Positions 3 through 63,233 of a DNA stretch of 64,000 bases are shown piece by piece. The notes beneath the pieces are model-generated. The model saw only the letters and a program-made list of their open reading frames with translations, had not been told where the DNA came from and ran no database searches. Position 1 is the first letter of the stretch. Every line of letters starts with the position of its first letter. Source of the stretch: Arthrinium phaeospermum (lineage: Eukaryota; Ascomycota; Sordariomycetes; Amphisphaeriales; Apiosporaceae); NCBI GenBank assembly GCA_006503535.1, contig QYRS01000009.1, positions 62,001 through 126,000 on the forward strand, written 5' to 3'. A program made the position numbers and the translations under genes.

Positions 3-2762
3 CAGACATCCCAATTTCTTTCTGTTCTACCTTTGGAGTCCAGCCAAGAAGTGCAGTCACTTCAGTCAAGCGGCATCTGCTCTCCAGAAGATATCCCCTT
101 ACCTCCCTCCCCTGTGTTGAACCAAGCCCACGTTGCTTTCACACCTGAACCTGTTGTCGTCGAAACCCAAGCTACAGCGCGATTGAGTGATCAAGACCCC
201 GCAAGTCGATCTGTCAGCACCGCTACCATGAGTGAAGCTGTACAGGATCAAATCAAAGCATTGGTGCTCGCCTTGAAAGGCGCACATGCTGTACTGCCCA
301 ACCCAGACTCTGTGCCGTCTCTGCGTTTCGATGGCAAGAATGTCTCCAAGTTCTTGGAACGATGGGACAATCATGCACGTCGTTACGCCATGACAGATGA
401 GGACAGAAAGCATGAGTTGCCCCTCTACGCTGATACACCCGATATGGAGGACTCTGTACGCACGGCAATCAAGGATGCTACCACCTGGAGTGAGATGGTC
501 GATGCTGCGAAGGAGTACTTCAAGATTGAGGACTCTAGACACTGGGGCTCTGGACTGTACCAAGTGAACCAGTACGAGACAGGCCCTATGGTTGCTGCCC
601 CTAAGGATGTCCATCTGTACGTCAGAGGACACAAGGAGAAGGTCTTGGAACATGGGCTACGCTCTACCTACTTTGGTCCTGGCAAGGAAGAGGCCGTGAT
701 CAGAATGCTGCGACGCATTGAACCGTCTGTCCGAACCAGCGTGGCCAATGGCAACATTGATGTGTTCGATATTCTGGACTATGAGAAAGTCTCAACGGCC
801 CTCCTCAAGTGGGCGGAGATAGCCTTACGACTAGACCCTTTCCATGCACCGCCAGAAAACACCACTGTCCAAGCTCAGGGACGCAGAGTTCAAGGCCTTC
901 CTGGATCTCCAGTCCTCTTGACAAGACAAGATACGCAACAGCAGGCAGCTGAAGCGTCAACCCAGGCTACAGCAAAGGCGTCAGACGTTGACAAGTTGGC
1001 CAAAATGTTCGACACTATGAGCATCAACCTTACCAATCGCATTGCAACTCTGGAAGCAGGACTACAGCCTGGTAGTTATCCAAATGGTGCTGTCGAGGTC
1101 CGCGATCATGATGCCATGCCTCAAGCCATAAGTGTCAACGCGGTACGCTTTGATCAGAGAGGTCCACCTCAGTATGGTCCTCGACAAGGTTCCTATCAGA
1201 GTCGGGATCGAGTACAAGTCCCAGAGGAGCTACCTTCCAACCAAGATATGATGCCCGATGGATGCTACTTTTGCGGGTTCAATACCCATCGTGTCAGTCG
1301 TTGCCCAAGCCAATACTTCTGTGACGCCCAAGGAATACTTCATTGGGACCAGGAGGCGTCTCAATTCCGCTACGCTGGCTCGTCAAGACAAGTGCAAGGC
1401 AACCTCATTCCCATGGCTGTACTGAAGAAGGCCCGTGCCGCGAACCGACCATATGTATGGGAATTGCTCAAGTATGTGGCCATGGAGGGAGAAGGCCCGG
1501 ACAATGAGAAGCTCTGTGCGAAGCATGCTCGATATCAACTACACAGAGCCAAGATATGGCGACGGGACGATGGCACTGTCGCATCTCAGTCCGACAAAGA
1601 CATGCAACCTCAGGTTGAGGAGACCGTTGATCAACAAGAACCGCCAGTTGCGGTATCGGTAGTCAATGTGGGTGCTGAACCAAGTGAGGATTTCAGCGTC
1701 GACTATGTATGGACCGAAGAAGAACCTGATTCTGACGGAGTTCGAGTCCTCAATGCTGCTTTCCCTGACGATGTTGTCGTCGAGGTTGACAACTCTGCTC
1801 CCAAGAAAAGAAAGATTGGAGAGACAGGGGAGTCGCGTTCTGTTCCTGTGGACGTCGACGAGGATAGCGGAGAAGACGCGTCTGGATCTCATCAACAGTC
1901 AGATGCCCAAAAGCTTCGGGCCTTCTGGAAGGAGAAGATCGTTGCCAACTCAGCCAAGAAGTTTGAGATCACTTGGGAAGAGCTCCTACTTGGCAACAAG
2001 GAGTTCGCCAATGCCTTGGCGGAATACACCAGCGAAAGTGTCGACAAGCATGATGGTATCGAAGAAACCATTAATGTTGCTACGTCCCGGGACAAGCGAG
2101 ATACGACACGTCCGCGACATGATCAGGTCAATGCACTCCAAGTACCCAACCTACAGGTCAACAGTTTCTCTCCAGAAGCCAATGTCGCGTTCACCCCTGA
2201 AATTGCCTCCCAGGTGAGAGGCAACAGCGACACCCTGTTGATGTACTACCCGCTGGGGAAAATCACAGTGTCCATTGGACACAACCCCGACGGGGAGAGG
2301 ATCAATGGCCTCATCGACACGGGAGCCGGAGCGTGCGTGCTGGTAGAGAGCTATTGCCACCGCAACAACCTCATCATTATGGAACAAACCATTGATATCC
2401 AGAGCTTTTCAACTCAAGGCGGACCCATCAGGACCATCGGAGTGGTGGTTGACAGAGTCTGGATGGGCAACCAACACCTGGATATGATGTTCTTCGTGGT
2501 TCCGGACGGCGCGGTCTCTCAGAAGCTCATCCTTGGCCAGAACTTCATGAAGCGAACAGCCATGAACATCAAGTTTGTAGCAGACGAAGACAAGGTGGCT
2601 GTCACGATGATCGTTGGTGCAGCTCGTCTCAACGTGCCGGTGATGCTGTCAGGATGTGCAAGGAAGCTGGGATCAAAGATGGCATCACTCAAGTCAAGCC
2701 AGGGAAACGAAGTCCAGCTGAGGAGTTCAGGCGCTTCAGCGAGGATTCAGAGCCTGAACTAG
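3..2762 (+). CDS. Gag-protease polyprotein of a Ty3/gypsy-type retrotransposon (5' end possibly outside window)
   Basis: Structural protein plus aspartic protease of the element. The frame is open to the left edge. The first ATG in the window is at 228 (residues MSEAVQDQIK follow), in a good context, so this may be the true start; an upstream start cannot be excluded. The capsid-like region (about 228-900) has the phrase LRFDGKNVSKFLERWD usual in fungal gypsy Gag. A zinc knuckle C-x2-C-x4-H-x4-C (CYFCGFNTHRVSRC) lies at about 1263-1304. The retroviral-type protease active site is LIDTGAGACVL at about 2310. The frame ends with TAG at 2760-2762, inside the overlap with pol. No stop or frame break interrupts the 2.7 kb, so the element looks young. 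Family assignment is sure; the start is not. Confidence 0.9.
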   Translation, partial: QTSQFLSVLPLESSQEVQSLQSSGICSPEDIPLPPSPVLNQAHVAFTPEPVVVETQATARLSDQDPASRSVSTATMSEAVQDQIKALVLALKGAHAVLPNPDSVPSLRFDGKNVSKFLERWDNHARRYAMTDEDRKHELPLYADTPDMEDSVRTAIKDATTWSEMVDAAKEYFKIEDSRHWGSGLYQVNQYETGPMVAAPKDVHLYVRGHKEKVLEHGLRSTYFGPGKEEAVIRMLRRIEPSVRTSVANGNIDVFDILDYEKVSTALLKWAEIALRLDPFHAPPENTTVQAQGRRVQGLPGSPVLLTRQDTQQQAAEASTQATAKASDVDKLAKMFDTMSINLTNRIATLEAGLQPGSYPNGAVEVRDHDAMPQAISVNAVRFDQRGPPQYGPRQGSYQSRDRVQVPEELPSNQDMMPDGCYFCGFNTHRVSRCPSQYFCDAQGILHWDQEASQFRYAGSSRQVQGNLIPMAVLKKARAANRPYVWELLKYVAMEGEGPDNEKLCAKHARYQLHRAKIWRRDDGTVASQSDKDMQPQVEETVDQQEPPVAVSVVNVGAEPSEDFSVDYVWTEEEPDSDGVRVLNAAFPDDVVVEVDNSAPKKRKIGETGESRSVPVDVDEDSGEDASGSHQQSDAQKLRAFWKEKIVANSAKKFEITWEELLLGNKEFANALAEYTSESVDKHDGIEETINVATSRDKRDTTRPRHDQVNALQVPNLQVNSFSPEANVAFTPEIASQVRGNSDTLLMYYPLGKITVSIGHNPDGERINGLIDTGAGACVLVESYCHRNNLIIMEQTIDIQSFSTQGGPIRTIGVVVDRVWMGNQHLDMMFFVVPDGAVSQKLILGQNFMKRTAMNIKFVADEDKVAVTMIVGAARLNVPVMLSGCARKLGSKMASLKSSQGNEVQLRSSGASARIQSLN

Positions 2763-5700
2763 ATCATGGCGAACATGATCAGAGAGCCGCGTTCCTAGAG
2801 TTGGTCCTACAACTTATGGTCGTCTCAGAAGTTGGAGAAGTCGACAACCCACAATCAGATGAGAGGATCCTGTGTACACTCTCAGACGATGACGTGTTGA
2901 AGTCCTTGAACGATCTTAGGACCCTGGTGAAGGAGCAGGCACCCATACTACACCATGATCACAACATTCCGACGTCGTTCTTCAAGCAAGGCCAACCCGT
3001 CAATGATATCCAAGTCAACACCATGTACAAGAAAAAAGGGGTAAAGGTGGAACCAGTTGATGATGTTCTACCGGACGAGGACACTCCAGCTGGTGACCTT
3101 GACTGGAAGAGGGCGGCACTTCAAGCAGCACTACCTTGGTGTGAAGGGGAGGCCCTATCGCGAAGGGATGGACCATTCAGCAACATCATGCCCCGGTTTG
3201 CCCAACAAGACAGGGGTTTTCGACTCACACCTGCCCGCCAAACTGAACTCAAGAGCATGTGGGACGAAGAGGATCTGACTGATCAAGAAAAGGACCTATT
3301 GATGGAAATCTGTCTCCGGAGAGAGAAAGTACTGGCATGGGACTTTGAAGAAGTCAGCACCATCAACCCAAGCGTTTCCCCTCCGTACGTCATCCCAACT
3401 GTGCCGCACAAGGCTTGGCAAGCAAAGGGAGTCAGCATCCCTGGGCCATTGCTGCAGAAGACTATCGAACTGCTCAAGAAGAGAGTCTCAGCTGGAATCC
3501 TGGAAGAGTCACATTCCCCATACCGCAATACCTGGTTCCTGGTCCAGAAGAAGAACGGTGACCTCCGGCTTATCAACTCAGCAACTCGACTCAACGGAGT
3601 GACGATCCGTGATGCTTTACTCCCCAAAGCATGCGATGCGTTTGCGGAAAGATGTTCCATGAGCCAAGTACTGTCACTGTTTGACCTGTTTTCTGGGTAT
3701 GATCAATGTCTACTGGCTAAGCAAAGCAGACCCCTGACAGCAATCATGACCCCGATTGGTCTGCTTCAGTTCACCAGGATACTCCAGGGAGCAACAAATT
3801 CCCCAGCACACTTCCAGCGTATCACGGAGCGGATCCTTCACGACATTCCTATGACAGTATCCGAGTCGTTTTTCGACGACATACCTGTCAAAGGACCCAA
3901 GACAACTTATGATCAGAAAGAAGCACACCCTGGTATCCGTCAATACATTCTGGAACACCTGGAGAATGTGGATCGAGTCTTTGTCAACCTGGAATTGGCT
4001 GGAGCATCCGTCAGTGCTCTCAAGTCGAAATGGTGCAAAAAGTCTACCGAGATTGTTGGGTACATGTGCGGCTCGTACGGACGACAACCTAGCCAAGCCA
4101 AAGTCACCAAGGTAGTCGAGTGGCCGTCGTGCCAAACGTTGGGAGAAGTCAGGTCTTTCCTCGGCCTTGCTGGCTGGTACCGGTCCTGGGTCCGTAACTT
4201 TGGTGCCATAGCGAAACCTCTCTTCCAACTCAGCAGGAAGAACGCAACCTTTGTCTGGGGCCCTGATCAGGAAAATGCGATGCGCATCTTGAAGGAAACG
4301 ATTGCTTCAGCCCCGTGTATCGCTTCTCCCAATTTCGACACTGGCGATATGTTCTACCTCCGTACCGATGCATCTGGAGAAGGCTGGGGTGCAGAGCTTG
4401 GACAGCTTGTCCAAGAAGTCAGGCAAACGATTCGGTTCGAGTCCGGCACCTGGATGGGAACGGAAGAATCCTATGATGCTGGGAAAAAGGAGTGCCTAGC
4501 GGTCGTGAAGACCCTCCGCAGACTGAAGGACTACCTCTTTGGTACGACGTTCTTGCTAGAAACAGATGCCAAGGTGCTGGTGGACCAGATCAACGACGGG
4601 GCAATGAATCTGGTTCCTAGTGCTCAGCTCACCCGATGGTTGGCGTTCATCAAGCTGTTCACCTTCGTGATAAAACATGTTCCAGGAAAACGCAATGTGG
4701 TTGCCGATGCGTTGTCAAGAAAGAGAGCTGGAGCATCTGACGCAGTGGATGACGAGTGGGAAGGAGATGTCGAAGACTTCTTGGACGTTCGAATCAACAT
4801 GATCGTGCCGGTCTGTTTGATCGGGGACTTGGATGAGGACGAGCCGGAACAGCCTGAGGCTTGGGCCAGTGAAGTGGTGACGTTCCTCAAGACACTCACT
4901 ATGCCAAAGCGCCTCATGAAAGACAGCCACGGCAACTTGAGCAAGAAAAGGGTACGATTCAAGTCGATGGCCTTGTCGTTTATGCTGCAAGATGGAGTCC
5001 TCTTCAAGAAGCCAACTCGCCAATACGCAGCAAGGAGAGTGGTGCAAACCACTGATCAGAAGCGTCTTGTCTGGAGACATGTACATGATGAGCTGGGCCA
5101 CAGGGGACGTGATGTGTGCTATCATCGGATCGTTGGCCTGTACTGGTGGCCTGGCATGTACAAGGATATCCGAGCCTGGAAGAAACAGTGCGAGCAATGC
5201 CAACGAGCTGAAGAAAGGAAAATCACCGAGCCCACTCTTTTCAGCGTGATCACAGATATCCTCACTGTTTGGGTCATGGATGTCCAGTATATGCCAAACT
5301 CCAGGGGGTACCTTGCCACGGTTGAGGCACGCTGCCAGGGGAGCGGCTACTTGGAATGCAGGGCTCTGCGAAAGGTCAACAGCGAGGCAGTGTCGAAGTT
5401 CCTACGCCAGCAGATTGTCTACCAACACGGAATGCCTATCAAGGTCTTGGTTGATGGAGGGTCCGAAAACAAGAAAGAAGTGGTCGAGAGCGCTGAGCAG
5501 TTGGGATTCCAAGTAGCTGTCGGACCAGCTTACCACCCCCAGCGCCAAGGACAAGTGGAGGTTGGCCACCGCCCCGTGACCAATGGTCTCAAGAAGGTCA
5601 CGGAAGGGACCGGCAAGAACTGGGTCGACTTCCTCCCTGCAGTGGTGTGGGCAGACCGCACGTCAGTACGCAGGTACGGCATGAGCCCCTACGAAGTGGT

Positions 5701-6319
5701 CTATGGCAGACAACCGATTCTTCCTCTGGAAACGTCGTTACCGTCATGGAGAGTCTTGAACTGGTCAACAAACATGTCAACCGAAGACCTACTGGCGGAG
5801 AAGGCCAGGATGTTTGTGAAGAGGGATGAGGATGTGAGGCGAGTCACGGCATCTCTGACCCGACAACGTCAGCAACAGGCGCGACTTTCTGATCAACGCC
5901 ATCAACATCGTGTACGCCCTAAGCCGTTGGCTGAAGGGGATTTGGTCCTGATGTATGATGTACCCAAGTCAGTTGACATGTCTTCGTCAGTTAAGTTGAC
6001 CTACCGATGGCTGGGCCCTTATGTGGTTGTTCACGACATGGGGAAGAGCAGATGGTCCTTGGCAGAGCTAGACGGGACCAAACTGAGAGGCGTCTACCAC
6101 GGAAATCGACTGAAGGCGTTCGAGCCGGCAGGAGATGGCATCTGGCGGGCGAAAGATCCAGAGAACGACCCCTGGCTGAGCGACCCTGGTGTGCACGACG
6201 AAGCAATCAGGGTTCGGGCAGAAAGAGAAGTGGAAAATGTTGATCACGAAGAGTTGAGTGGTGACATTACAATTTTTGAGGGGAGGACGAGAGCCTCTCA
6301 GGAAAACCTAAAGATGTAA
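2654..6319 (+). CDS. Pol polyprotein (reverse transcriptase, RNase H, integrase), made by -1 frameshift from gag
   Basis: The open frame overlaps the end of gag by about 110 bases and lies in the -1 frame, so real translation should join near base 2708. Reverse transcriptase covers roughly residues 220-450: FDLFSGYDQC near 342, and the catalytic box reads FFDD (near 405) instead of the common YxDD. RNase H follows (RTDASGEGWG near 570, later HVPGKRNVVADALSR). The integrase has an HHCC finger (HDELGH ... CEQCQ, about 808-850), then catalytic Asp in WVMDVQY, Asp in VDGGSE and Glu in QGQVEVG. I count 34 residues between the last two, one fewer than the classic 35. A GPY/F-like GPYVV module follows and no chromodomain is evident. 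The order RT-RNaseH-IN is that of Ty3/gypsy. The frame is uninterrupted. Confidence 0.93.
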   Translation: MCKEAGIKDGITQVKPGKRSPAEEFRRFSEDSEPELDHGEHDQRAAFLELVLQLMVVSEVGEVDNPQSDERILCTLSDDDVLKSLNDLRTLVKEQAPILHHDHNIPTSFFKQGQPVNDIQVNTMYKKKGVKVEPVDDVLPDEDTPAGDLDWKRAALQAALPWCEGEALSRRDGPFSNIMPRFAQQDRGFRLTPARQTELKSMWDEEDLTDQEKDLLMEICLRREKVLAWDFEEVSTINPSVSPPYVIPTVPHKAWQAKGVSIPGPLLQKTIELLKKRVSAGILEESHSPYRNTWFLVQKKNGDLRLINSATRLNGVTIRDALLPKACDAFAERCSMSQVLSLFDLFSGYDQCLLAKQSRPLTAIMTPIGLLQFTRILQGATNSPAHFQRITERILHDIPMTVSESFFDDIPVKGPKTTYDQKEAHPGIRQYILEHLENVDRVFVNLELAGASVSALKSKWCKKSTEIVGYMCGSYGRQPSQAKVTKVVEWPSCQTLGEVRSFLGLAGWYRSWVRNFGAIAKPLFQLSRKNATFVWGPDQENAMRILKETIASAPCIASPNFDTGDMFYLRTDASGEGWGAELGQLVQEVRQTIRFESGTWMGTEESYDAGKKECLAVVKTLRRLKDYLFGTTFLLETDAKVLVDQINDGAMNLVPSAQLTRWLAFIKLFTFVIKHVPGKRNVVADALSRKRAGASDAVDDEWEGDVEDFLDVRINMIVPVCLIGDLDEDEPEQPEAWASEVVTFLKTLTMPKRLMKDSHGNLSKKRVRFKSMALSFMLQDGVLFKKPTRQYAARRVVQTTDQKRLVWRHVHDELGHRGRDVCYHRIVGLYWWPGMYKDIRAWKKQCEQCQRAEERKITEPTLFSVITDILTVWVMDVQYMPNSRGYLATVEARCQGSGYLECRALRKVNSEAVSKFLRQQIVYQHGMPIKVLVDGGSENKKEVVESAEQLGFQVAVGPAYHPQRQGQVEVGHRPVTNGLKKVTEGTGKNWVDFLPAVVWADRTSVRRYGMSPYEVVYGRQPILPLETSLPSWRVLNWSTNMSTEDLLAEKARMFVKRDEDVRRVTASLTRQRQQQARLSDQRHQHRVRPKPLAEGDLVLMYDVPKSVDMSSSVKLTYRWLGPYVVVHDMGKSRWSLAELDGTKLRGVYHGNRLKAFEPAGDGIWRAKDPENDPWLSDPGVHDEAIRVRAEREVENVDHEELSGDITIFEGRTRASQENLKM
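2702..2760 (+). promoter_or_regulatory. Programmed -1 ribosomal frameshift site with predicted H-type pseudoknot
   Basis: The heptamer G GGA AAC (2702-2708) is a canonical X XXY YYZ slippery site and is in the correct phase: GGA and AAC are gag codons. A -1 slip gives exactly the pol frame (the pol codons read GGG AAA CGA). After an 8-base spacer, 2717-2723 can pair with 2734-2740 (7 bp, one G-U). The loop 2724-2732 is perfectly complementary to 2752-2760 (9 bp). This makes an H-type pseudoknot ending on the gag stop codon. The parts are seen directly; function is inferred from known -1 frameshift signals. Confidence 0.8.
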
Positions 6320-19987: not shown

Positions 19988-22900
19988 ATGAATGAGCCCA
20001 TAGCCGTCATTGGCCTGGATGCCGTCTTCCCTGGAGAGGCCGATACGGCGGAGAACTTCTACCAGTTGGCTCTAGGAGGCAAGTCGGCTCGGACGTCTCT
20101 GCCCCCTGATCGGTACCATGCCGAGGCCTACTGGCACCCCGACCTGGAGAGGGCCGGTGCAGTAAGTGGTCAAATCTACCAGTAGCCTCATCCCGGTCAC
20201 AGTACAGGCTGGTGTTGACTGCATAGGTTCGAAACACTACCGGCCACTACTTGGCCCAAGACGTGGCCGCCTTTGACGCCCCTTTCTTTTCCATCACGGC
20301 CCAAGAGGCAGGTGCCATGGACCCGCAGCAGAGGGGCTTGCTGGAGGGAACGTACCGCGCACTCGAGAATGGCAAGTATGCAACAGACTTGATCCTTCTA
20401 CATACGCTAACCCCTGCACCAGCGGGCATCCCTCTGGGCTCGGTCAAAGGGACCCAGACGGGCGTCTACGTGGGCTGCTTCAGCCACGACTACCAAGGGC
20501 TGCTCCAGAAAGACATTGACGCCCGCTCCAAGTACTCGGGCCTCGGTACCGGTGCCAGCATCCTTAGCAACCGGATCTCCTGGTGGTATGATTTGCGGGG
20601 GCCGAGTGTCACCGTCGACACGGCCTGTTCCAGCAGCCTCGTCGCGGCCCACCAGGCCTGCCAGGACCTGCGTGTCGGGGAGACGGACCTGGCCATTGCC
20701 GCCGGCTGCAACTTGATCCTGTCGCCGGACGAGACCCTGGAGCTCGACGCGCTCGGCGTTCTCAGCCCGGACGGCCGCTCGTACAGCTTCGACGCCCGGG
20801 CCAACGGCTACGGGCGCGGCGAAGGCTTTGGCGTCGTTGTTCTCAAGAGGGTGTCGGATGCTATTCGGCATGGCGACACGATCCGGGCCGTGATTCGCGG
20901 CTCGGGCGTCGGCCAGGACGGAAGGTCTCCGGGCATCTCCCAGCCTAGCAGGGCAGCCCAGCTCGCGCTGATGAGGCATGTCTATTCGAAAGCTGGCCTG
21001 GATCCATCACTGACACGGTTCTTTGAAGCGGTAGGTCTCATATCTTGCTCACAAGGCACTGTCTCTCCGATGCTGACCACTTCATGAGTAGCATGGTACG
21101 GGGACTATGGTTGGGGATCCCATCGAGGTCGGTCACTTTTTCCCTTTCCCCTTACCCATCGCCTTGCTGAAAGCTAGTGATTGCTAAATGGCCCCAGGCT
21201 AGCGCCATTGCCGACATGTTTGCTTCGCACCGATCCAAAGACCAGCCTCTCTACATCGGTGCTCTGAAAAGTAATATCGGCCACCTCGAAGGCGCGGCCG
21301 GAATCGCGTCCATCATCAAGGGGGTGCTCACCCTCGAAAAAGGTGTGATACCCCCCAACATCAACTTTGAGCATCGAAACCCGGCCATTCTGGACGAATG
21401 GAACGTCGACTTTCCCACCAAACCATGCCCCTGGCCTGTGACGGAGGGCGGGCTGCGCCGAATGTCCATCAACTCCTTTGGGTTCGGGGGCACCAACGCT
21501 CACATGGTCCTGGACGACGCCGAGCACTATCTTCAAAGCTATCTTACGTCAACCGGAATGGATGGGACCAGCTCCGGGACGTCGAGCCAGCTCGGCCACA
21601 AAGACTCGGGCTTGGCTTCCGAGGTGGACTCCGAGCCAGAGGCCCAAATGCCGAGTCATGCTGCATTGGTCAGTCACCCTGCCCAATTCGTCGTCCGTTC
21701 CCGGCAAGAGGGTCCCCGTATTTTCGTCTGGTCCGCCCACGACCAAGCCGGTATCGCACGCATCCGAGCATCCTACCGTGCGTATGCAGCCTCCAAAGCG
21801 CAGAATGGTTTATCGAAGGAGGAGGAACAGTCCTTTCTTCGCGATCTGAGCTACACGCTGACAACCCGTCGAACCCACCACGATTGGCGATCGTATACCG
21901 TTGCTCAGTCTATCGAGGACCTGGGCAGGTCTGCTGATGACGAGTACACTATTCGTGTCCATCCCGATCCCAAGCTTGCACTCGTGTTTACCGGGCAGGG
22001 AGCTCAGTGGCCCGCCATGGGCAAGGAGCTGTTCGCATACCCCGTCTTCCAAGAAAGCCTGGTGGAAGCGGACCGCTACCTAGCGAGTCTGGGATGCCAG
22101 TGGTCTTTGATTGGTAAGTACTCTTTCATTTTGATGATTACCTACTCTTATTCCCCTTGGGTTTCAAGTCAGTCACACTAACACGTATGCTTGTTTAGCC
22201 GAACTACTCAGCCCTGCAGAGACATCCAAGATTGATGATCCCACCTACAGCCAGCCCATCTGCACCGCTCTCCAGGTGGCGCTGGTGGATCTTTTGGAGT
22301 CCTGGGGCGTTGTCCCCCGCGCAGTCATTGGTCACTCGTCGGGGGAGATTGCGGCGGCGTACGCGGCTGGTCATCTCTCGAAATCCGCGGCGTGGAAAAT
22401 CGCCTATTATCGCGGAAAGCTTTCGGGCCAGCTAAGTAACAACTCGGGGCCGCTGCAGCAGCCGAAGACGACCATGGCAGCCGTTGGGTTGGATCTGGTC
22501 CAGTTGGCTCATTATGTCGACGAGGTGCAAGCTCTGAAACTCACGCCGGGCGGCGGAAGGCTCGAAGTGGCCTGCATGAATAGCCCCCAAAGCCAAACCA
22601 TCAGCGGCACGGTGGCCGAAGTTGATGCTCTGGTAAGCGACTTTCGGTGTTTATTCCTTTCTGTTCTAGTGTTTATTCCACGTTATTCCAGTGTCTCACG
22701 AGGGATGGAATAACCGCTTATTCTAAAAATTCCACTATTCCCTCTTGGGACATTTTATTCGCCCCAAGAAGAGTAATTGCTGACGACACCGAGAGCCGAT
22801 AGGTAGCGATGCTGCGGGAAGACGATATTTTCGCGCGGAAACTCAAAGTGTCGGTTGGCTACCATTCTCGATTCATGATGCCCCTTGCAGAGGAATATGC

Positions 22901-25900
22901 CATGCTTATTGGAGACGGCGGCATCGAGGGCCGAGGCTCGGATACGATGGCTGCCGCGCACCCTCGGTTCTTCTCGTCCACCTACGGCAGCTCTGACTTC
23001 GACCTGGCGGAACTCCGGCAAGCCTCATATTGGGTGAGGAACCTGGTGTCCCCGGTACGGTTCCATGAGGCCGCCGCCGCGATGCTGAAAGGGGAAGAAG
23101 CGGACAGCCGGTTCTCATTGAATACGATCACAGACCTGCTCGAGGTTGGTCCGCATGGCGCAATGAGTGGACCCCTTCGTAGCATTATGAAGCACCAAGC
23201 CAGCAGTAAGGCGAGTCGATCGGCGACCTATCAGTCCATCTTGACCCGGAACCGGTCCGCGCAAGCTACGGCGCTCCAAGCTCTGGCGGCGCTTGTCTGT
23301 CACGGGCATGATGTTGATTTGACTGCCGCTGGACAATGTCGCCAGTCTTCGGCTGCCGCCATGCTGACCGACCTGCCTTCCTACCCCTTCAACCACACCA
23401 AGCGGTACTGGTCCGAATCGAGGCTGGCCAGGAACTTCCGCTTCCCCTCGGCGGGCCGTCACGAGCTGCTCGGACGGCCCCTGACAGACGACATGGGGCC
23501 CGAGGCTCCCAAGGTTTGGCGCAATTGGATGAGGGTCTCCGAGAATCCCTGGATGCTGGACCACAAGGTCCAAGGCGAGGTCCTATATCCGGCGGCCGGC
23601 ATGCTGGTCATGGCCATCGAGGCCAGTCTACAGGTACACGGCGGCGGTAGCAGCAGCAAGAAGAGACTCAAGGCACTCCGCATGAAAGATGTGTCGTTCC
23701 ATCTCGCCTGCCGCATCCCGGAGGACTCCAAGGGCATTGAGGCTTATTTCTCCCTGACGCCGCCCCGTTCTGGCGGTCTGGCCAACAGGTCGGGCTGGAG
23801 CGAGTTCCAGTTCCTCTCCCGTGACGACGAACAAGATTCTGAATGGAGAGAGCACTGCCGCGGTTTTGTTCAGCTCGAGTATGAAGCAGACCCCAGTGCC
23901 GTGGACAACGGTCTGGATGAGCATCTATTTCGGGAGGCCATCCGTCAAGAAGTCCAGAGGAATCAGCAGGCGTGTGGTCAAAGCTATACAGCCCGCCAAG
24001 TGTATCACGCACTGAGACGATCCGGCCTGGAGTACGGAGCGGCCTTCCGGGCCATCCGACAAGCCTCTGTGGCGAGTGAAAATACCGTGCATGCGCTCGT
24101 GGACAATGCGGTTCCGAAGCTCCTCCCGTCTATGCCCCATCAATACGTGCAGCCCCACATGCTACATCCGACGACGCTAGACTGCGTCTTCCAGGGCAGC
24201 TTGCTGCCCCTGGTGCTGAGGGTCCCAGGTGAGTCGGCCAAACGACGAGGCGCCTTTGTACCCACCCACCTGGACGAGTTGTGGGTAGCAACATCTCCCC
24301 AACACGGTTCCTATTGCGCTTCGGGAACCGCCACATCGACAACAACAAATGAAGTACGTCTAGACATCAGTGCCGTGGATGAACAATCGGACGAGCCCAT
24401 GATCAAGGCGGTTCTGCGTGCCGCCGCCCAGCCAAGCCAAAGCCCCTGGATGATGATGGATGATCAAGAGCAGAAGCCGCTCGCTTTCAAGGTGGAATGG
24501 AAGAGCGACCCGGGCCTTTTCGGCGATAGGGAAATGGAATTGTTCTTTCAGGGCGCCTCGCAATCCACGAGTAATACAGTAACCGAAGGGTTCACATCCA
24601 ACGACCTCGAGCTCCTTTGCCGGCTCTACTTACGCCAGCTGCTCATCTCCCTCGAACAAATCCCGGTCTCAGTGGCCGCTCCGCACATGAACCAATACTT
24701 GACCTGGGCCCGGCATCAAGCAAGCTTGCTTCGAGATGACGAGCCCTCGGGCGTGAGCATCCAAGAGTTGGAGAGCAAGTTCGAATCGTCACCGGATCCC
24801 CACCCCGAGGCACGCCTGGTTGCAGCGGTCGGTCCCTCCTTGTATGACATTGTCTCGGGCCAGAGAGAGGCCCTCGAGGTCGTTTTCCGGGACAATCTGG
24901 CCGACGACGTGTACCGATACGGCTTCGGCGCCGACAAGATCTATGCGCGTCTGTGCGCCTACCTGGATCTGCTGGCCCACAAGAACCCCGGGCTGCGGAT
25001 CCTCGAGGTGGGCGCCGGCACCGGCGGCACTACGGCGCCCGTCCTCGAGTCGCTTTCCTCCGGCTCCAGCGAGGGCCACGGGGGCTGCCGGTTCGGCCAC
25101 TACGACTTCACCGACATATCACCCTCTTTCTTCGAGCAGGCCCAGGACAAGTTTGCGAAGCTGGCACCCCATGGTCGTGTCCGCTATCGGGTTCTGGATA
25201 TCGAGAAGAGCGCCGTCGACCAGGGGTTCGCGGCCGGGTCGTACGACGTCGTCATGGCCGCCAACGTGGTCCACGCCACCCATTCCATTCAGGCGACGCT
25301 GGGCCACGTCTTGCCGCTGCTCAAGCCGGGCGGAAAGCTGATATTGTACGAGGTGTCCGACACCGCCGCCGTGGGGCCTGGCTTCTGTTTCGGCATCTTC
25401 CCCGGCTGGTGGCTCGCGCAGGAGCCGGAGCGGTCGACGTCGCCGCTGCTGGGCGTGGACGCCTGGAGGTCGCACCTCCGGTCTGCGGGGTTCGCCGAGC
25501 AGGTCGACAGCTTCAGCTGGAAGCAGTGCTCCCTCATCGTCGCCACCAAACCGGACCTCCCCGTGACGCCAGACTCGATGCGGCCCGTCCACATCGTGGT
25601 CCAAGACGGCTCCGAGATGCAGCGTTCCCTGGCCCAGCGTCTGTCGGAGTGGATGCTCCCCAGGGTGTCGTCATCTGTCTCGATTCTGACGAGCTCGGAG
25701 GCCCGACAGAGAAAAGTCTCGCTGGGTATGTGCATCTTCGCTATGGAATGGGAACACCCGGTCTTGGGTAATATGACAGAAGAGCAACTGGACGCGATCA
25801 AGCATATCGTGAGCCACAGCGACGAGGTAGTGTGGCTCTCTAGACTAGATGAGATGGCCGATCCGGACAAAGACTTGATCCAAGGGTGGGCGCGGGTCAT

Positions 25901-28750
25901 CCGGTCCGAACACCCCCACCTGAAACTCCGCACCATTTCATTTGAGGGTCGGGACCTAGACTACGCTGCCCGAAAGATGGCCGAGATCATTTCTAGTGGT
26001 GCTCGGAGCGAGGAGAACAGCTTCCGGGTCACCGAGAGCTCCGTTTTGATTCCGCGGCTGACGGAAGCCCGTGGCGTGGACTCGCATCTTCGGAAATTCG
26101 GCGCGAGGACGACGGGCCCGCAGCACACCGTGATGGAGCCCCTGAGCATGCACCAAGACCGACCCTTGGCCCTGACCATGGGCACGGTCGGCTTGTTGGA
26201 GACATTTTACTTGGAGGACGATCCGCGGGCCGACAGTCCCCTGCAGCCGGACGAGGTCGAGTTCCGCGCCATGGCGTGCGGGATCAACTCCAAGGACTTG
26301 GCCCTGGCCCTGGGCAAAGTACGCAACGAGTCCTTCTCGGCGCTTGAGGCTTCGGGGGTGGTTACGCGGGCCGGCGCGTCCTCCACGTTCCGGGTGGGCG
26401 ACAAGATCTTGGGACTGGCTATTCGTTCGGGCAGCGCTCTCGGGGGTGGCTTCCAAACACGCGTGCGGAGCCACGATGGGCTCCTGTTCAGGCTGCCGGA
26501 CGACGATGGCAACATTAGCTGGGCCCAGGCGGCCGGCATCCCGCTGGTTTACACGACCGTCTTTGGCTGTCTGTGCGAACGGGAGCACTTACGCGAGGGG
26601 GACAGCATTCTTATCCATGCAGCCACGGGCGGCGTGGGCCAGGCGGCGATTCAGATAGCCCAGAGTGTGGGCGCCGAGGTCTTTGCTACCGTGGGAAGCG
26701 TCGAGAAACGCGACTTTCTAGTAAGTCCAGCCACAGCGGCGGATCACCCGTGTTTGAAGCCCAGGTGGTGGTATATCGGTTACGATGCTAACGACATGAC
26801 AGGAATCGACCTATGGCCTCGCGCGCGACCACATCTTCTCCAGCCGCGACCTCACATTCAAGTCCCAACTCCTCCGCCAGACGGGCGGGCGCGGCGTCGA
26901 CGTCGTGCTCAACTCCCTGGCGGGCGAGTCTCTGAAGGCGTCTTGGGACTGCGTGGCCCCCTTCGGCCGGTTCGTCGAGCTGGGGACCGGCGACATCGCC
27001 GCCAACGCCCAGCTGGGCATGGCCAATTTCGCACGGCACACACGTTTCGAGGCCTTCGACCTGTCCTACCTCGTCCGACAGACGGACCCGGCCGTCCGCC
27101 AGCGGACGCAACGCATGTTCCAAGGTGCCATGGAACTGGTGCTCGGGCCCCACTTCAGGGGCGTTCGGGGCAAGATGCCCGTCACCGTCTTCCCCATGTC
27201 GGACGTGCAGGGGGCGTTCCGACACATGCAAGCCGCCAAGCACATCGGAAAGCTGGTAAGCGACTTTCGGTGTTTATTCCTTCCTATTCTTCTGTTTATT
27301 CCACGTTAGTCCAGTGTCTCGCGAGGGATAGAATCACCGTTTATTCTACAAACTTCCACTACTCCCTCGCGAGACATTCTATTACCCCAAGATTAAATGC
27401 TGACACCGAGAGTCGATAGGTACTCGAGCCTCAAGGCGACCAGGTAGTGGCGATCGTGTCCCGGAACGAGATGCCGCGGCAGAAGACGACGAGTTTCGAT
27501 GCAGATGCCTCATACGTCATTTCGGGTGGGCTTGGCGGCCTGGGCAAGGCGATTGCGAGGTGGATGGTTTCTCGAGGGGCCAAACATCTGATATTGCTGT
27601 CTCGATCGGGTGCCGAGACAGATCCGGAGCGTCAGGGCTTTGTGCAATCCCTCGAGGCCCAGGGCGCGACAATAGCGGCACCCACCTGCGACGTATCGTG
27701 TCGTGACACCCTCCAGAGCGTCATACGCGAGTGCTTGGAGGTCAAGGGGATGCCACCCATTAAGGGTTGTGTTCAGGGGTCGATGGTACTGAAGGTGAGT
27801 GGCCACTTAGTGAGTCTGCGGACATGATGCTGACCACGTCTACCTAGGACAATATGTTCTCCGACATGTCACTCGAGGAGTGGCATGCCGCGATCAAGCC
27901 CAAGGTAGACGGCTCCTGGAACCTACACCACGTCTTGGGTCCCGCTCTGGACTTTTTCGTCCTGCTTTCGTCCGCCACCGGCGTCATTGGCCTGCGGGAA
28001 CAATCCAACTATGCTGCCGGCACCGCTTTCCAAGACGGTCTGGCCCGCTATCGAGTCAGCCAGGGCTCCTATGCCGTGTCGCTTGACCTGCCTCCCGTGG
28101 CGGATGTGGGATTTGTCGCCGAGAGACCCGAGCTTCTCGAGTCCCTCCGACGTCAGGGGCTGGACTTGCTTCCATTGGAAGATCTCTTGGCGGTCCTGGA
28201 CTACTACTGCAGTCCCGCAGAGAGGACGAATCTAACGGTCTCGGACTGCAACGTGGTCCTCGGGCTAGCCCCTCCACGGGAGCTGGAGGCGGAGGGTATC
28301 GTGGCACCCCGCTACCACCAAGATCCGCTGTTCCGCCATCTCCTCCAAGCAGGAAGCTCTACCACTGAACGTCAGCTCGTGAGCAACAAACAGGAGCCGA
28401 GACATTACGCCATCTTGACGGCAGCGGCGTCGCCCGAAGAGGCACACAAGATTGTCCTCGACGCCCTCGTCCGCAAGCTCGCGCGCATCCTCAGCGTGGA
28501 GACCGAGGCGCTCGACCCGTCCCGTCCCCTGCACTCCCTTGGCATCGACTCGCTCGTGTCGGTCGAGCTCCGGTCCTGGCTCGCCCGGGAGCTAGGCGTG
28601 CAGATGACGGTGCTGGAGATGACCGGCAAGGCCAGCGTGAGACAGCTGGCCGAGTCGGCGGTGGCAAAGAGTCAGTACACGCCCAAGTTTGGGGGCGATG
28701 GGGCAAAGGATACAGATTTGAAGATGCAAGAGCCAGGTTCAAGTTCTTGA
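19988..28750 (+). CDS. Highly reducing type I polyketide synthase (KS-AT-DH-MT-ER-KR-ACP)
   Basis: Ten exons: 19988-20161, 20227-20371, 20423-21030, 21092-21127, 21198-22113, 22199-22632, 22803-26720, 26803-27255, 27420-27794 and 27848-28750; 2,653 residues, all junctions in frame. KS: Cys near 175 in DTACSSS, His in EAHGTGT and NIGHLEGAAG. AT: FTGQGAQWPAMG and GHSSGE (Ser near 671). DH: His near 1023 in MLDHKVQG with LHPTTLDCV. C-methyltransferase: LEVGAGTGGTT near 1505, intact. ER: IHAATGGVGQAA near 2042. KR: SGGLGGLGKAIA near 2264 and Tyr in NYAAG. ACP: Ser near 2586 in LGIDSLVSVE. No thioesterase or reductase follows, so release must be in trans; the nearby alpha/beta hydrolases are candidates. 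Expected product: an iteratively built, reduced, alpha-methylated chain. Introns 6 and 8 are copies of one element; intron 2 starts with GC. Confidence 0.95.
22633..22802 (+). repeat. Introner-like element A (PKS intron 6)
   Basis: A 170-base intron between CTG and GTA codons in the AT domain (phase 0). It is by eye about 80-85% identical to PKS intron 8 along its whole length. It has near-terminal inverted repeats CGACTTTCGGTGT (22638-22650) and ACACCGAGAGCCG (22786-22798), 11 of 13 matching. GGTA flanks it on both sides, as a target duplication would. Confidence 0.8.
27256..27419 (+). repeat. Introner-like element B (PKS intron 8)
   Basis: A 164-base intron between CTG and GTA codons at the ER-KR junction (phase 0), a near-copy of intron 6. 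Terminal inverted repeats are CGACTTTCGGTGT (27261-27273) and ACACCGAGAGTCG (27403-27415), 12 of 13 matching and fully pairable in RNA with one G-U. It also holds a perfect 14-bp inner inverted repeat, 27315-27328 with 27363-27376 (TGTCTCGCGAGGGA). GGTA flanks both ends. Confidence 0.85.
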
Positions 28751-61658: not shown

Positions 61659-63233
61659 CTACGACTTCACCAGCAGGCTCTTGCCCGACATCTCCTCAGG
61701 CTGGGGCAGGCCCATGCAGGCCAGGACGGTCGGCGCGACGTCGCCCAGCACGCCCTCGTCGCCCTGCTTGAGGCTCCAGCCGGCGGGGGCGTTGGCCATG
61801 ATGAAGGGCACCTTGTTGGTCGTGTGCGACGTCTTGGGCTTGCCGTCGGGGAACTTCATCTCCTCGGCGTTGCCGTGGTCCGACGTGATGAAGAGCACGT
61901 AGCCCTCCTTCTTGCACGCCTCGAGGATCTTGCCGATGGCCTTGTCGGTAGCCTCAACACCGACGAGGGCGGCCTCGTAGACGCCCGTGTGGCCGACCAT
62001 GTCGGGCGGGGCAAAGTTGTTCATGACGAAGGGGAACTGCTGCTCGCCGAGGCGCTTGGCCACCTGGTTGGCGACGCCGTCGGCGCTCATCTCGGGGGCC
62101 TGGTCGTAGGTGGCGACGCTCTTGTTGGAGGGCACGAGGTCCTGGGACTCGTCGCGGGCCTCGAGCTTGAAGACCTTCTCGACGCCGCCGTTGAAGAAGA
62201 AGGTGACGTGGGCGTACTTCTCCGTCTCGGCAATGTGGACCTGCTCGACGTCCTGGACGCCCAGCCACTCGGCCAGGACGTTGTCCATGGTCTGGGGCTT
62301 GAAGGCGATCTCGAAGGGGTAGCCGCCCTTGTACTGCGTCATGGTCACGTAGTTGGCCTTGGGGTAGGCAAAGTCGGGCAGCGGCGAGCGGTCGACGTCG
62401 CCGAGCAGCTGCGTGATCTGGCGCACGCGGTCCGAGCGGTAGTTGAAGAAGAAGACCTCGTCGCCGTCCTGGATGCGGGCCTCCTGGCCGCCCACGATGA
62501 TGGGCTTGAGGAACTCGTCGTTCTCGCCCTTCTCGTAGCGCTCCTTGACCGTCTTGACGGGGTCGGAGCTCGCCTCGCCCTCGCCCAGAATCAGGCCCTT
62601 GAGGGCGAGCTCGACGCGCTCCCAGCGCTTGTCGCGGTCCATGGCGTAGTAGCGGCCGACGACGGTGGCGATCTGGCCGATGCCGAGCTCCTGCGTCTTG
62701 GCCAGCAGCTCCTCCATGTAGCCGGCGCCCGACTTGGGGTCGGTGTCGCGGCCGTCGCCGAAGAAGTGGATGAAGACCTTGGGCACGCCGACGGCCTTGG
62801 CGGCCTCGAGCAGGGCGTAGAGGTGCATCTGCTTGGCGTGGACGCCGCCGTGCGAGACGAGGCCGCAGAGGTGCAGGCGGCCCTTCTGCTTGGCCGACTC
62901 GAACTGCTTCTTGATGACCTGGTTCTGCAGCAGCTCGCCCTTCTTGATGGTCTGGTCGATGCGGACGACGTCCTGCCAGACGACGCGGCCGGCGCCGATG
63001 TTGAGGTGGCCGACCTCGGAGTTGCCCATCAGGCCCTCGGGCAGGCCGACGGCGAGCGACGAGGCCTCGAGCTGGGTGAAGCCGGCGCCCTTGTAGAGCT
63101 GGTCCATGACGGGCGTGTTGGCGTTGGTGATGGCATCGCCGTTCTTGGGGCTGTCGGCGCCCGGCACACCCCAGCCGTCAATGACGATGAGGCACGCCTT
63201 CTGCTCGGTCTTCTTGTGGGTGGTGTTGGACAT
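61659..63233 (-). CDS. gpmI: Phosphoglycerate mutase, cofactor-independent (2,3-BPG-independent)
   Basis: Single exon, 524 residues, the normal length. The two-manganese alkaline-phosphatase-like fold is evident: LIVIDGWGVPG (first metal Asp), catalytic Ser in GLMGNSEVGHLN, HFFGDGRDTDPKSG, GRYYAMDRDKRWER, FFFNYRSDRVRQI, and the C-terminal metal ligands NNFAPPDMVGHTG and ITSDHGNAEEM. It interconverts 3- and 2-phosphoglycerate in glycolysis in the cytosol. The leader upstream (63234-63300) is pyrimidine-rich on this strand, common in highly expressed fungal genes. The end LPQPEEMSGKSLLVKS is typical. Confidence 0.97.
   Translation of the reverse strand: MSNTTHKKTEQKACLIVIDGWGVPGADSPKNGDAITNANTPVMDQLYKGAGFTQLEASSLAVGLPEGLMGNSEVGHLNIGAGRVVWQDVVRIDQTIKKGELLQNQVIKKQFESAKQKGRLHLCGLVSHGGVHAKQMHLYALLEAAKAVGVPKVFIHFFGDGRDTDPKSGAGYMEELLAKTQELGIGQIATVVGRYYAMDRDKRWERVELALKGLILGEGEASSDPVKTVKERYEKGENDEFLKPIIVGGQEARIQDGDEVFFFNYRSDRVRQITQLLGDVDRSPLPDFAYPKANYVTMTQYKGGYPFEIAFKPQTMDNVLAEWLGVQDVEQVHIAETEKYAHVTFFFNGGVEKVFKLEARDESQDLVPSNKSVATYDQAPEMSADGVANQVAKRLGEQQFPFVMNNFAPPDMVGHTGVYEAALVGVEATDKAIGKILEACKKEGYVLFITSDHGNAEEMKFPDGKPKTSHTTNKVPFIMANAPAGWSLKQGDEGVLGDVAPTVLACMGLPQPEEMSGKSLLVKS

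What the first reader, a model, noticed from the sequence alone, without database searches (positions are those of the whole stretch)
22633..27419. Two PKS introns are near-copies with terminal inverted repeats: introner-like elements
Introns 6 (22633-22802) and 8 (27256-27419) lie in unrelated parts of the gene (AT domain; ER-KR junction), so domain duplication cannot explain them. They share the first 26 bases exactly and are about 80-85% alike throughout by eye. Both have 13-base near-terminal inverted repeats (CGACTTTCGGTGT / ACACCGAGAGTCG) and intron 8 has a perfect 14-bp inner stem. Both interrupt CTG|GTA in phase 0 and are flanked by GGTA on each side, as if a 4-base target duplication supplied the donor GT. 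This is what a DNA-transposon-like, intron-generating element should look like. Introner-like elements are known in some fungi (Dothideomycetes) and algae; a family in this lineage, active in a secondary-metabolite gene, may be new.
Basis: partly seen in the sequence, partly recalled or inferred. Interest (0 to 1): 0.88.

Follow-up and report, generated by a model that had tools for sequence, protein, structure and literature searches.

The report
Self-copying introns in an Apiospora-like fungus
Two introns in a polyketide gene of a fungus close to Apiospora belong to a genome-wide family of copied introns that have slipped precisely into genes at a preferred short sequence, a rare view of how new introns may arise in fungi.

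Summary
Introns 22633-22802 and 27256-27419 are 84% alike and are two of 115 loci found in the 48.4-Mb genome (109 with a profile match, 81 near full length, median 168 nt). The fungus is Apiospora-like. Exact GT...AG removal restores frame and protein where tested. At the four sites tested, relatives' frames or paralogues run through uninterrupted, so these look like gained introns: an introner family.

The proposed mechanism, a DNA transposon whose 4-base target duplication supplies the donor GT, is only partly supported. The family has a 13-pair near-terminal inverted repeat and a sharp site preference (T)G|GT: the 3' flank starts GT in 61 of 81 copies, and in 13 of 13 copies mapped as non-coding or antisense. 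But no locus-specific duplication was found, and all 20 copies whose 3' flank is not GT still start with GT. So the unit seems to carry both splice sites and to insert seamlessly.

Its layout matches the near-terminal repeats of Xylariales stwintrons; it differs in sequence, in being a canonical intron, and in its site preference. A survey says ascomycete introners lack inverted repeats. New variant of a known kind; whether it moves by RNA or DNA is open.

The parts
22633..22802 (+). introner copy 1 (intron 6, inside the AT domain of the PKS), 170 nt, GTAAGC...ATAG
   Evidence: exact excision gives an AT-domain Pfam match across the junction; related frames P0002, P0004, P0005, P0018 run through the site
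22638..22650 (+). 5' near-terminal inverted repeat of copy 1
22786..22798 (+). 3' near-terminal inverted repeat of copy 1 (ACACCGAGAGCCG)
22780..22784 (+). predicted branch site CTGAC of copy 1 (A 19 nt before the 3' end; 16 nt in most copies)
22692..22705 (+). inner stem, 5' arm, copy 1 (12 of 14 with 22739-22752)
22739..22752 (+). inner stem, 3' arm, copy 1
27256..27419 (+). introner copy 2 (intron 8, end of the ER domain), 164 nt
   Evidence: homologues read HIGKL-VLE or alike without interruption
27261..27273 (+). 5' near-terminal inverted repeat of copy 2
27403..27415 (+). 3' near-terminal inverted repeat of copy 2; its first A is the predicted branch A, so this arm lies between branch site and acceptor
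27315..27328 (+). inner stem, 5' arm, copy 2 (14 of 14 with 27363-27376)
27363..27376 (+). inner stem, 3' arm, copy 2
22630..22632 (+). target flank CTG before copy 1 (followed after the element by GTA, 22803-22805)
27253..27255 (+). target flank CTG before copy 2 (followed after the element by GTA, 27420-27422)
20251..28747 (+). host gene: reducing polyketide synthase, KS-AT-DH-MT-ER-KR-ACP (domain-bearing part, introns included; gene start not determined)
   Evidence: ER from the Pfam lists of homologues; the searched part is 86% to Apiospora marii and 67% to A. hydei

Best explanation
These are two members of an introner family in an Apiospora-like fungus. The mobile unit is exactly one canonical U2 intron of about 168 nt: donor GTAAGC, branch site CTRAY 16 nt from the end, acceptor ATAG. 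It carries both of its own splice sites. It inserts seamlessly, preferentially at (T)G|GT, mostly in the sense orientation in genes, and is then spliced out so that the protein is unchanged. SHOWN by sequence: the family, its boundaries, the site preference, the lack of a locus-specific duplication, restored frames in most long-flank copies, absence from relatives or paralogues at four sites. INFERRED: splicing itself (no RNA data). INFERRED, about 50%: copies move through the excised intron RNA, whose near-terminal stem (nt 6-18 with the 13 nt that start at the branch A and end 4 nt before the 3' end) holds the two ends together while it is inserted into transcribed DNA by reverse splicing or RNA-templated break repair.
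For: Family: 97 5' ends, control 0; 76 3' ends, control 1; union 115 loci, 51 of them seen by one end only, 109 with a profile hit; 81 near full length. Ends coincide with splice sites: GT 75, AG 70, both 65 of 81. Site: G at +1 in 77, GT in 61, TG|GT in 25, AG| in 2 of 81; background GT 5.2%, TGGT 0.5% of coding positions. In the 13 copies mapped as non-coding or antisense GT is 13 of 13, so splicing selection does not make the motif. Frame: exact excision leaves a sense frame with both arms >=90 nt in 39 of 50, against 4 of 50 with the element kept; 33 of 50 lie in one continuous sense frame by a codon model. Pfam matches cross the junction in 6 of 10 proteins tried (of 38 candidates), 5 above the curated cut-off. 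Gain: P0002, 80% identical across the intron 6 site, is one frame there yet reads on into the place of ordinary intron 7; intron 8 is absent from P0121, 57%; paralogues of an MFS and an S53 gene run through their sites. No duplication. Own GT: 20 of 20.
Against: No RNA-seq. 10 of 50 copies map as non-coding and two have no coding call within 1.4 kb, unexpected for a purely transcript-linked process. Antisense frames with arms >=90 nt are also common, 30 of 50, and excision shifted by 1 or 2 nt still gives 31 and 35 of 50. Short-flank coding tests are weak: 46 of 81 sense, 14 antisense, 21 neither; 37 of 75 sense, 8 antisense, 30 neither. Frame consistency across the junction, 46 of 75 (61%), is little above 57% for random window positions; inside long ORFs it is 85%. 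Antisense copies in exons would be purged, so sense bias alone does not prove RNA. The terminal stem shows no compensatory change beyond shuffles (882 of 952 cells paired, shuffled mean 881). Reverse splicing would predict AG|G rather than TG|GT (recalled). One copy has a 13-bp flanking repeat.
Confidence: 0.57

Rival explanations
1. MITE-like DNA transposon: a transposase recognises the inverted repeats, inserts the element at GT with a 2-bp (or GGT) target duplication, and the 5' copy becomes the donor.
For: 13-pair near-terminal inverted repeat, less diverged than the rest even in 29 copies found without using the ends (3.2% v 8.9%); sharp target motif, also in copies mapped as non-coding or antisense, 13 of 13; non-coding copies exist; no RNA covariation.
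Against: No clear locus-specific 5'/3' match; all 20 copies with non-GT 3' flank start with GT, two at codons that homologues suggest were not GT; 4 of the 20 most consensus-like copies have a non-GT flank; among 81 exact repeat cores the only inward pairs wider than 155 bp within 20 kb are the 466-bp copy and the outer cores of the two PKS copies, so no candidate partner; sense-coding enrichment, 34 v 10 non-coding (p 0.0007 against 0.52 from the window map).
Confidence: 0.3
2. Microhomology-driven template switching during DNA break repair copies an intron from another gene; TG and GT flanks of the donor copy pair with TG|GT in the target.
For: The target motif equals the flanks that many copies already carry; it allows non-GT targets with intact donors.
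Against: The 40 closest pairs do not share more flanking bases than all pairs (4.45 v 4.21 of 16); it does not explain why this intron family is favoured over other introns.
Confidence: 0.1
3. Ordinary old introns made alike by gene or domain duplication, or by chance.
For: None beyond the shared host gene of the two copies.
Against: 115 loci, in genes with unrelated domains where tested; i6 is closest to a copy on contig 11, 94%, and i8 to one on contig 1, 87%, not to each other; relatives lack them.
Confidence: 0.02

Closest known systems
Sister stwintrons and cropped sister introns of Hypoxylaceae/Xylariaceae, with NTIRE-10 elements (PMC8469720 and PMC12403724, sections read)
   Same: Same subclass, Xylariomycetidae; short copied introns at new positions; near-terminal inverted repeats starting inside the donor, the 3' arm between branch site and acceptor with a very short spacer; internal symmetry; seamless insertion.
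   Different: Different order (Amphisphaeriales v Xylariales). Here canonical introns, not twin introns; different repeat sequence (theirs 5'-GUAUAAAAAC); the 10-nt palindrome is all but absent (TTTCTAGAAA in 0 of 81, ATTCTAGAAA in 1); a strong (T)G|GT site preference, whereas those papers report random sites. Their elements were not available for a direct sequence comparison.
Introner-like elements of Dothideomycetes (PMC4457414, abstract and passages seen; van der Burgt 2012 only as quoted in PMC8469720)
   Same: Canonical fungal introns multiplied at new positions.
   Different: The quoted AG/GY preference is not seen here (AG| in 2 of 81). Sequences not compared.
TIR-bearing introners of algae and dinoflagellates, e.g. 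Symbiodinium (PMC9860276, sections read)
   Same: Inverted repeats at the ends, biased target.
   Different: The Symbiodinium family co-opts the 5' splice site from a 4-bp target duplication; here both splice sites seem to belong to the unit.

Membership tests
Introner (PMC9860276 sense) | At least five introns in one genome alike up to both splice boundaries | tested here: met
   81 near full-length copies, 65 of them with both GT and AG
Introner (PMC9860276 sense) | New intron position, absent from relatives | tested here: met
   Four sites tested. i6: P0002, P0004, P0005, P0018; i8: P0121, P0122, P0124, taking these database proteins as unspliced frames; an MFS and an S53 site by paralogues
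Introner (PMC9860276 sense) | Spliced from mRNA | not testable with these tools
   No RNA-seq; frame and protein continuity only
DNA-transposon introner | TIR of 6 nt or more within 20 nt of the ends | tested here: met
   12 pairs counted at nt 7-18, a 13th at nt 6 by reading
DNA-transposon introner | Target site duplication with locus-specific match | tested here: not met
   Offsets -8 to +8: best is -1, 0.70 v 0.65, p 0.033 uncorrected; next +3, p 0.075
DNA-transposon introner | One splice site co-opted from the duplication | tested here: not met
   20 of 20 non-GT-flank copies start with GT
DNA-transposon introner | Autonomous partner with the same ends | tested here: inconclusive
   Exact 13-base core only; no new wide pair within 20 kb
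Dothideomycete ILE | AG/GY insertion preference (as quoted in PMC8469720) | tested here: not met
   AG| in 2 of 81, TG| in 34 of 81
Dothideomycete ILE | Sequence similarity to described ILE families | not tested
   No ILE sequence was at hand
Xylariales [D1,2] stwintron | Two nested introns, unit starting GGT | tested here: not met
   Base -1 is G in 70% only; removing GT...AG alone restores the protein at i6 and i8
Xylariales NTIRE layout | About 10-nt near-terminal repeats, 5' arm from the donor, 3' arm between branch site and acceptor | tested here: met
   against the text of PMC12403724
Xylariales NTIRE layout | NTIRE-10 sequence | tested here: not met
   GACTTTCGGTGT v GUAUAAAAAC, by reading

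The most novel reading that the evidence does not exclude
An ascomycete introner family that combines a spliceosome-exact mobile unit carrying both splice sites, near-terminal inverted repeats and sequence-specific seamless integration at TG|GT, in and out of genes. That combination would need either a site-selective reverse-splicing route or an unrecognised no-duplication recombinase, and would bridge the RNA-type fungal introners and the DNA-type algal ones.
Probability: 0.4. Interest if true: 0.82.

Novelty: new variant of a known kind. Interest (0 to 1): 0.64.

Why it matters
[quoted passage not shown] This family has both repeats and a sharp site preference, 115 loci, and pairs up to 96% alike, so insertion into defined targets and splicing can be tested. 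It also sits in genes with clear protein homologues, from a PKS to a GMP synthase.

Tried and rejected
A nested insertion that would reveal the target duplication: the 466-bp copy on contig 10 turned out to be internal tandem duplication. RNA covariation of the stem: none beyond shuffles. Segmental duplication as source: flanks of close pairs do not match more than others. The Hypoxylon palindrome: all but absent. Relatives of the introner by its open frame in the protein database: no candidate shared enough words. Rfam over the window: nothing at gathering threshold. The family was not sought in other fungal genomes: the tool states that this genome has no relatives held, and the other DNA collections are described as prokaryotic, viral, plasmid or without scans left; I did not scan them.

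Rows dropped: of 119 profile hits, 81 were kept (30 bits or more, model start 5 or less, end 160 or more); the rest are fragments, rearranged copies or weak reverse-strand self-matches. The coding map and the ORF test used the 50 of 81 copies with long flanks; the coding model was trained partly on the same loci and the window. Stem conservation over 81 copies (7.3% v 16.6%) is biased because many were found by their ends; the 29 BLAST-found copies are the fairer figure. Of 38 spanning frames, 10 went to Pfam; 4 of these gave no match across the junction, and the condensation match is below Pfam's cut-off.

On checking I mended two things: the inner stem of intron 6 is 12 of 14, and Apiospora belongs to another order than the stwintron fungi.

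Full report
OBSERVATION. Introns 22633-22802 and 27256-27419 of the PKS gene are 83.6% identical, share their first 27 bases, and have the inverted repeats described; the inner stem is perfect in intron 8 and 12 of 14 in intron 6. No other full copy lies in the window.

GENOME. The window is contig 9, 62001-126000, of a 48.4-Mb assembly in 19 contigs. The PKS part searched is 86% identical to a protein named Apiospora marii and 67% to A. hydei, so the fungus is Apiospora or a near relative; the species is not known to me.

FAMILY. BLAST with intron 8 scored 40 of 89 candidates and gave 41 matches; with a divergent copy, 43 matches from 40 of 106 candidates. The 5' 25-mer with up to 3 mismatches gives 97 places (control 0), the 3' 22-mer 76 (control 1). 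Merged these make 115 loci; 51 of them rest on one end only (35 on the 5' end, 16 on the 3' end). A profile of 29 copies matches 109 of the 115 on the same strand and gives 81 near full-length elements, median 168 nt. Nearest-neighbour identity has a median of 88% and a maximum of 96%. Intron 6 is closest to a copy on contig 11 (94%), intron 8 to one on contig 1 (87%), so the two are separate insertions and not copies made within the gene.

INTRON ANATOMY. Donor GTAAGC; branch site CTRAY in 65 of 81, with the A 16 nt before the end in 63 of these 65; acceptor ATAG. The near-terminal stem pairs nt 6-18 with the 13 nt that begin at the branch A and end 4 nt before the 3' end (12 pairs counted, the outermost by reading). 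The whole element is partly self-complementary (mean identity to its own reverse complement 55%, z above 3 in 46 of 81). The stem does not covary among copies.

ARE THEY INTRONS? Excision of exactly GT...AG leaves a sense frame with both arms at least 90 nt in 39 of 50 long-flank copies; with the element kept, 4 of 50; antisense 30 of 50; excision shifted by 1 or 2 nt, 31 and 35 of 50 (Wilcoxon p 0.003 and 0.001 against the shifts, 0.0003 against antisense). A codon-model map puts 33 of 50 in one continuous sense frame, 1 in sense with a frame change, 2 sense on the left only, 1 mixed, 3 antisense and 10 non-coding; the window itself is called 64% coding. Short-flank tests are weaker: 46 of 81 sense, 14 antisense, 21 neither; 37 of 75 sense, 8 antisense, 30 neither; and frame consistency is 61% against 57% at random window positions and 85% inside long ORFs. 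Pfam matches cross the junction in 6 of 10 proteins tried: acyltransferase (intron 6), epimerase, amidohydrolase, amidase and MFS above the cut-off, condensation below it; 4 of 10 gave none. Solved GMP synthases cross another junction, and tripeptidyl-peptidase 1 weakly another. Splicing itself is inferred.

GAINED? P0002, from a database contig, aligns at 80% straight through the intron 6 site, and its end reads into the position of ordinary intron 7, so it looks like an unspliced frame that lacks intron 6 but has intron 7 (the last step is my inference). P0004, P0005 and P0018 also run through. For intron 8, P0121 (57%), P0122 and P0124 run through. In the same genome, paralogues of an MFS gene and an S53 peptidase gene align across sites where the query gene is split. 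The other 77 near full-length copies were not tested for this.

TARGET SITE. Over 81 copies: exon +1 is G in 77, +1+2 is GT in 61, -1 is G in 70%, -2 is T in 49% and A in 9%. GT is 5.2% and TGGT 0.5% of coding positions. Phases of the 33 sense copies are 18, 5, 10 for phases 0, 1, 2; G|GT sites in coding DNA are 48, 29, 23% (no test made). Among the 13 copies mapped as non-coding or antisense GT is 13 of 13, among 34 sense coding copies 25 (Fisher p 0.047), so the motif belongs to integration and not to splicing.

DUPLICATION OR NOT? The survey's test for duplications (PMC9860276, section 23 read), redone here, finds no clear locus-specific match: the best offset is -1, p 0.033 uncorrected. 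Direct repeats across the junction are about as long as in shuffled pairs, except one 13-bp case on contig 4. All 20 copies with a non-GT 3' flank start with GT. In GMP synthase the codon after the site is GAG here and Lys in the three solved homologues whose alignments were shown, so position +2 was A either way. In the S53 gene the split codon is TAC, Tyr also in TPP1, so +1 was C or T. The GT is therefore part of the element, at least there.

MECHANISM. For RNA: the unit equals an intron, insertion is seamless, sense coding sites are over-represented (34 v 10 non-coding, p 0.0007 against 0.52), and the layout matches the NTIRE elements that Fekete and co-workers link to an RNA intermediate (PMC12403724, section 16 read). 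For DNA: inverted repeats, target motif, non-coding copies, no covariation. Among 81 exact repeat cores no new wide pair was seen, so no partner element is in view. I put RNA at about 50%, transposase-like at 30%.

LITERATURE. PMC9860276 states that ascomycete introner families have no TIRs or TSDs (section 8 read; also section 4 part 1 and section 23). PMC8469720 (section 9 parts 1-2, section 17 part 1, section 28 part 1) and PMC12403724 (sections 11, 14, 16) report Xylariales stwintrons with inverted repeats at random sites. PMC4457414: abstract and passages. Full-text searches for introner with Apiospora and with Arthrinium returned no paper; supplementary tables could not be read, so an unlabelled earlier listing cannot be excluded.

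Noticed in passing
window 33-6319 (+): Two long ORFs just upstream of the PKS gene; the second holds reverse transcriptase, RNase H and integrase zinc-binding domains of a retroelement.
   Followed up: no
P0001, Apiospora marii PKS model: The model lacks about 65 residues around the intron 6 site; perhaps a misprediction around an intron there.
   Followed up: partly
G000 C9:200532-200972 (-), L087: An introner copy carrying about 270 bp of other sequence, some 470 bp from an S53 peptidase reading frame on the same strand.
   Followed up: partly
G000 C10:1057481-1057946 (+), L047: A 466-bp introner made of repeated internal segments, about 2.8 times the usual length.
   Followed up: yes
G000 C4:117785-117952 (+), L078: Of 81 copies the only one flanked by a long direct repeat, 13 bp.
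   Followed up: partly
G000 contig 17 (517 kb): Seven introner loci where 1.2 are expected; possibly a different kind of chromosome region.
   Followed up: no
G000, pairs of loci: Six pairs of loci lie within 6 kb, five on the same strand, where 1.6 pairs are expected; the PKS pair is one.
   Followed up: no
window 61659-63230 (-): Phosphoglycerate mutase of the cofactor-independent type.
   Followed up: no
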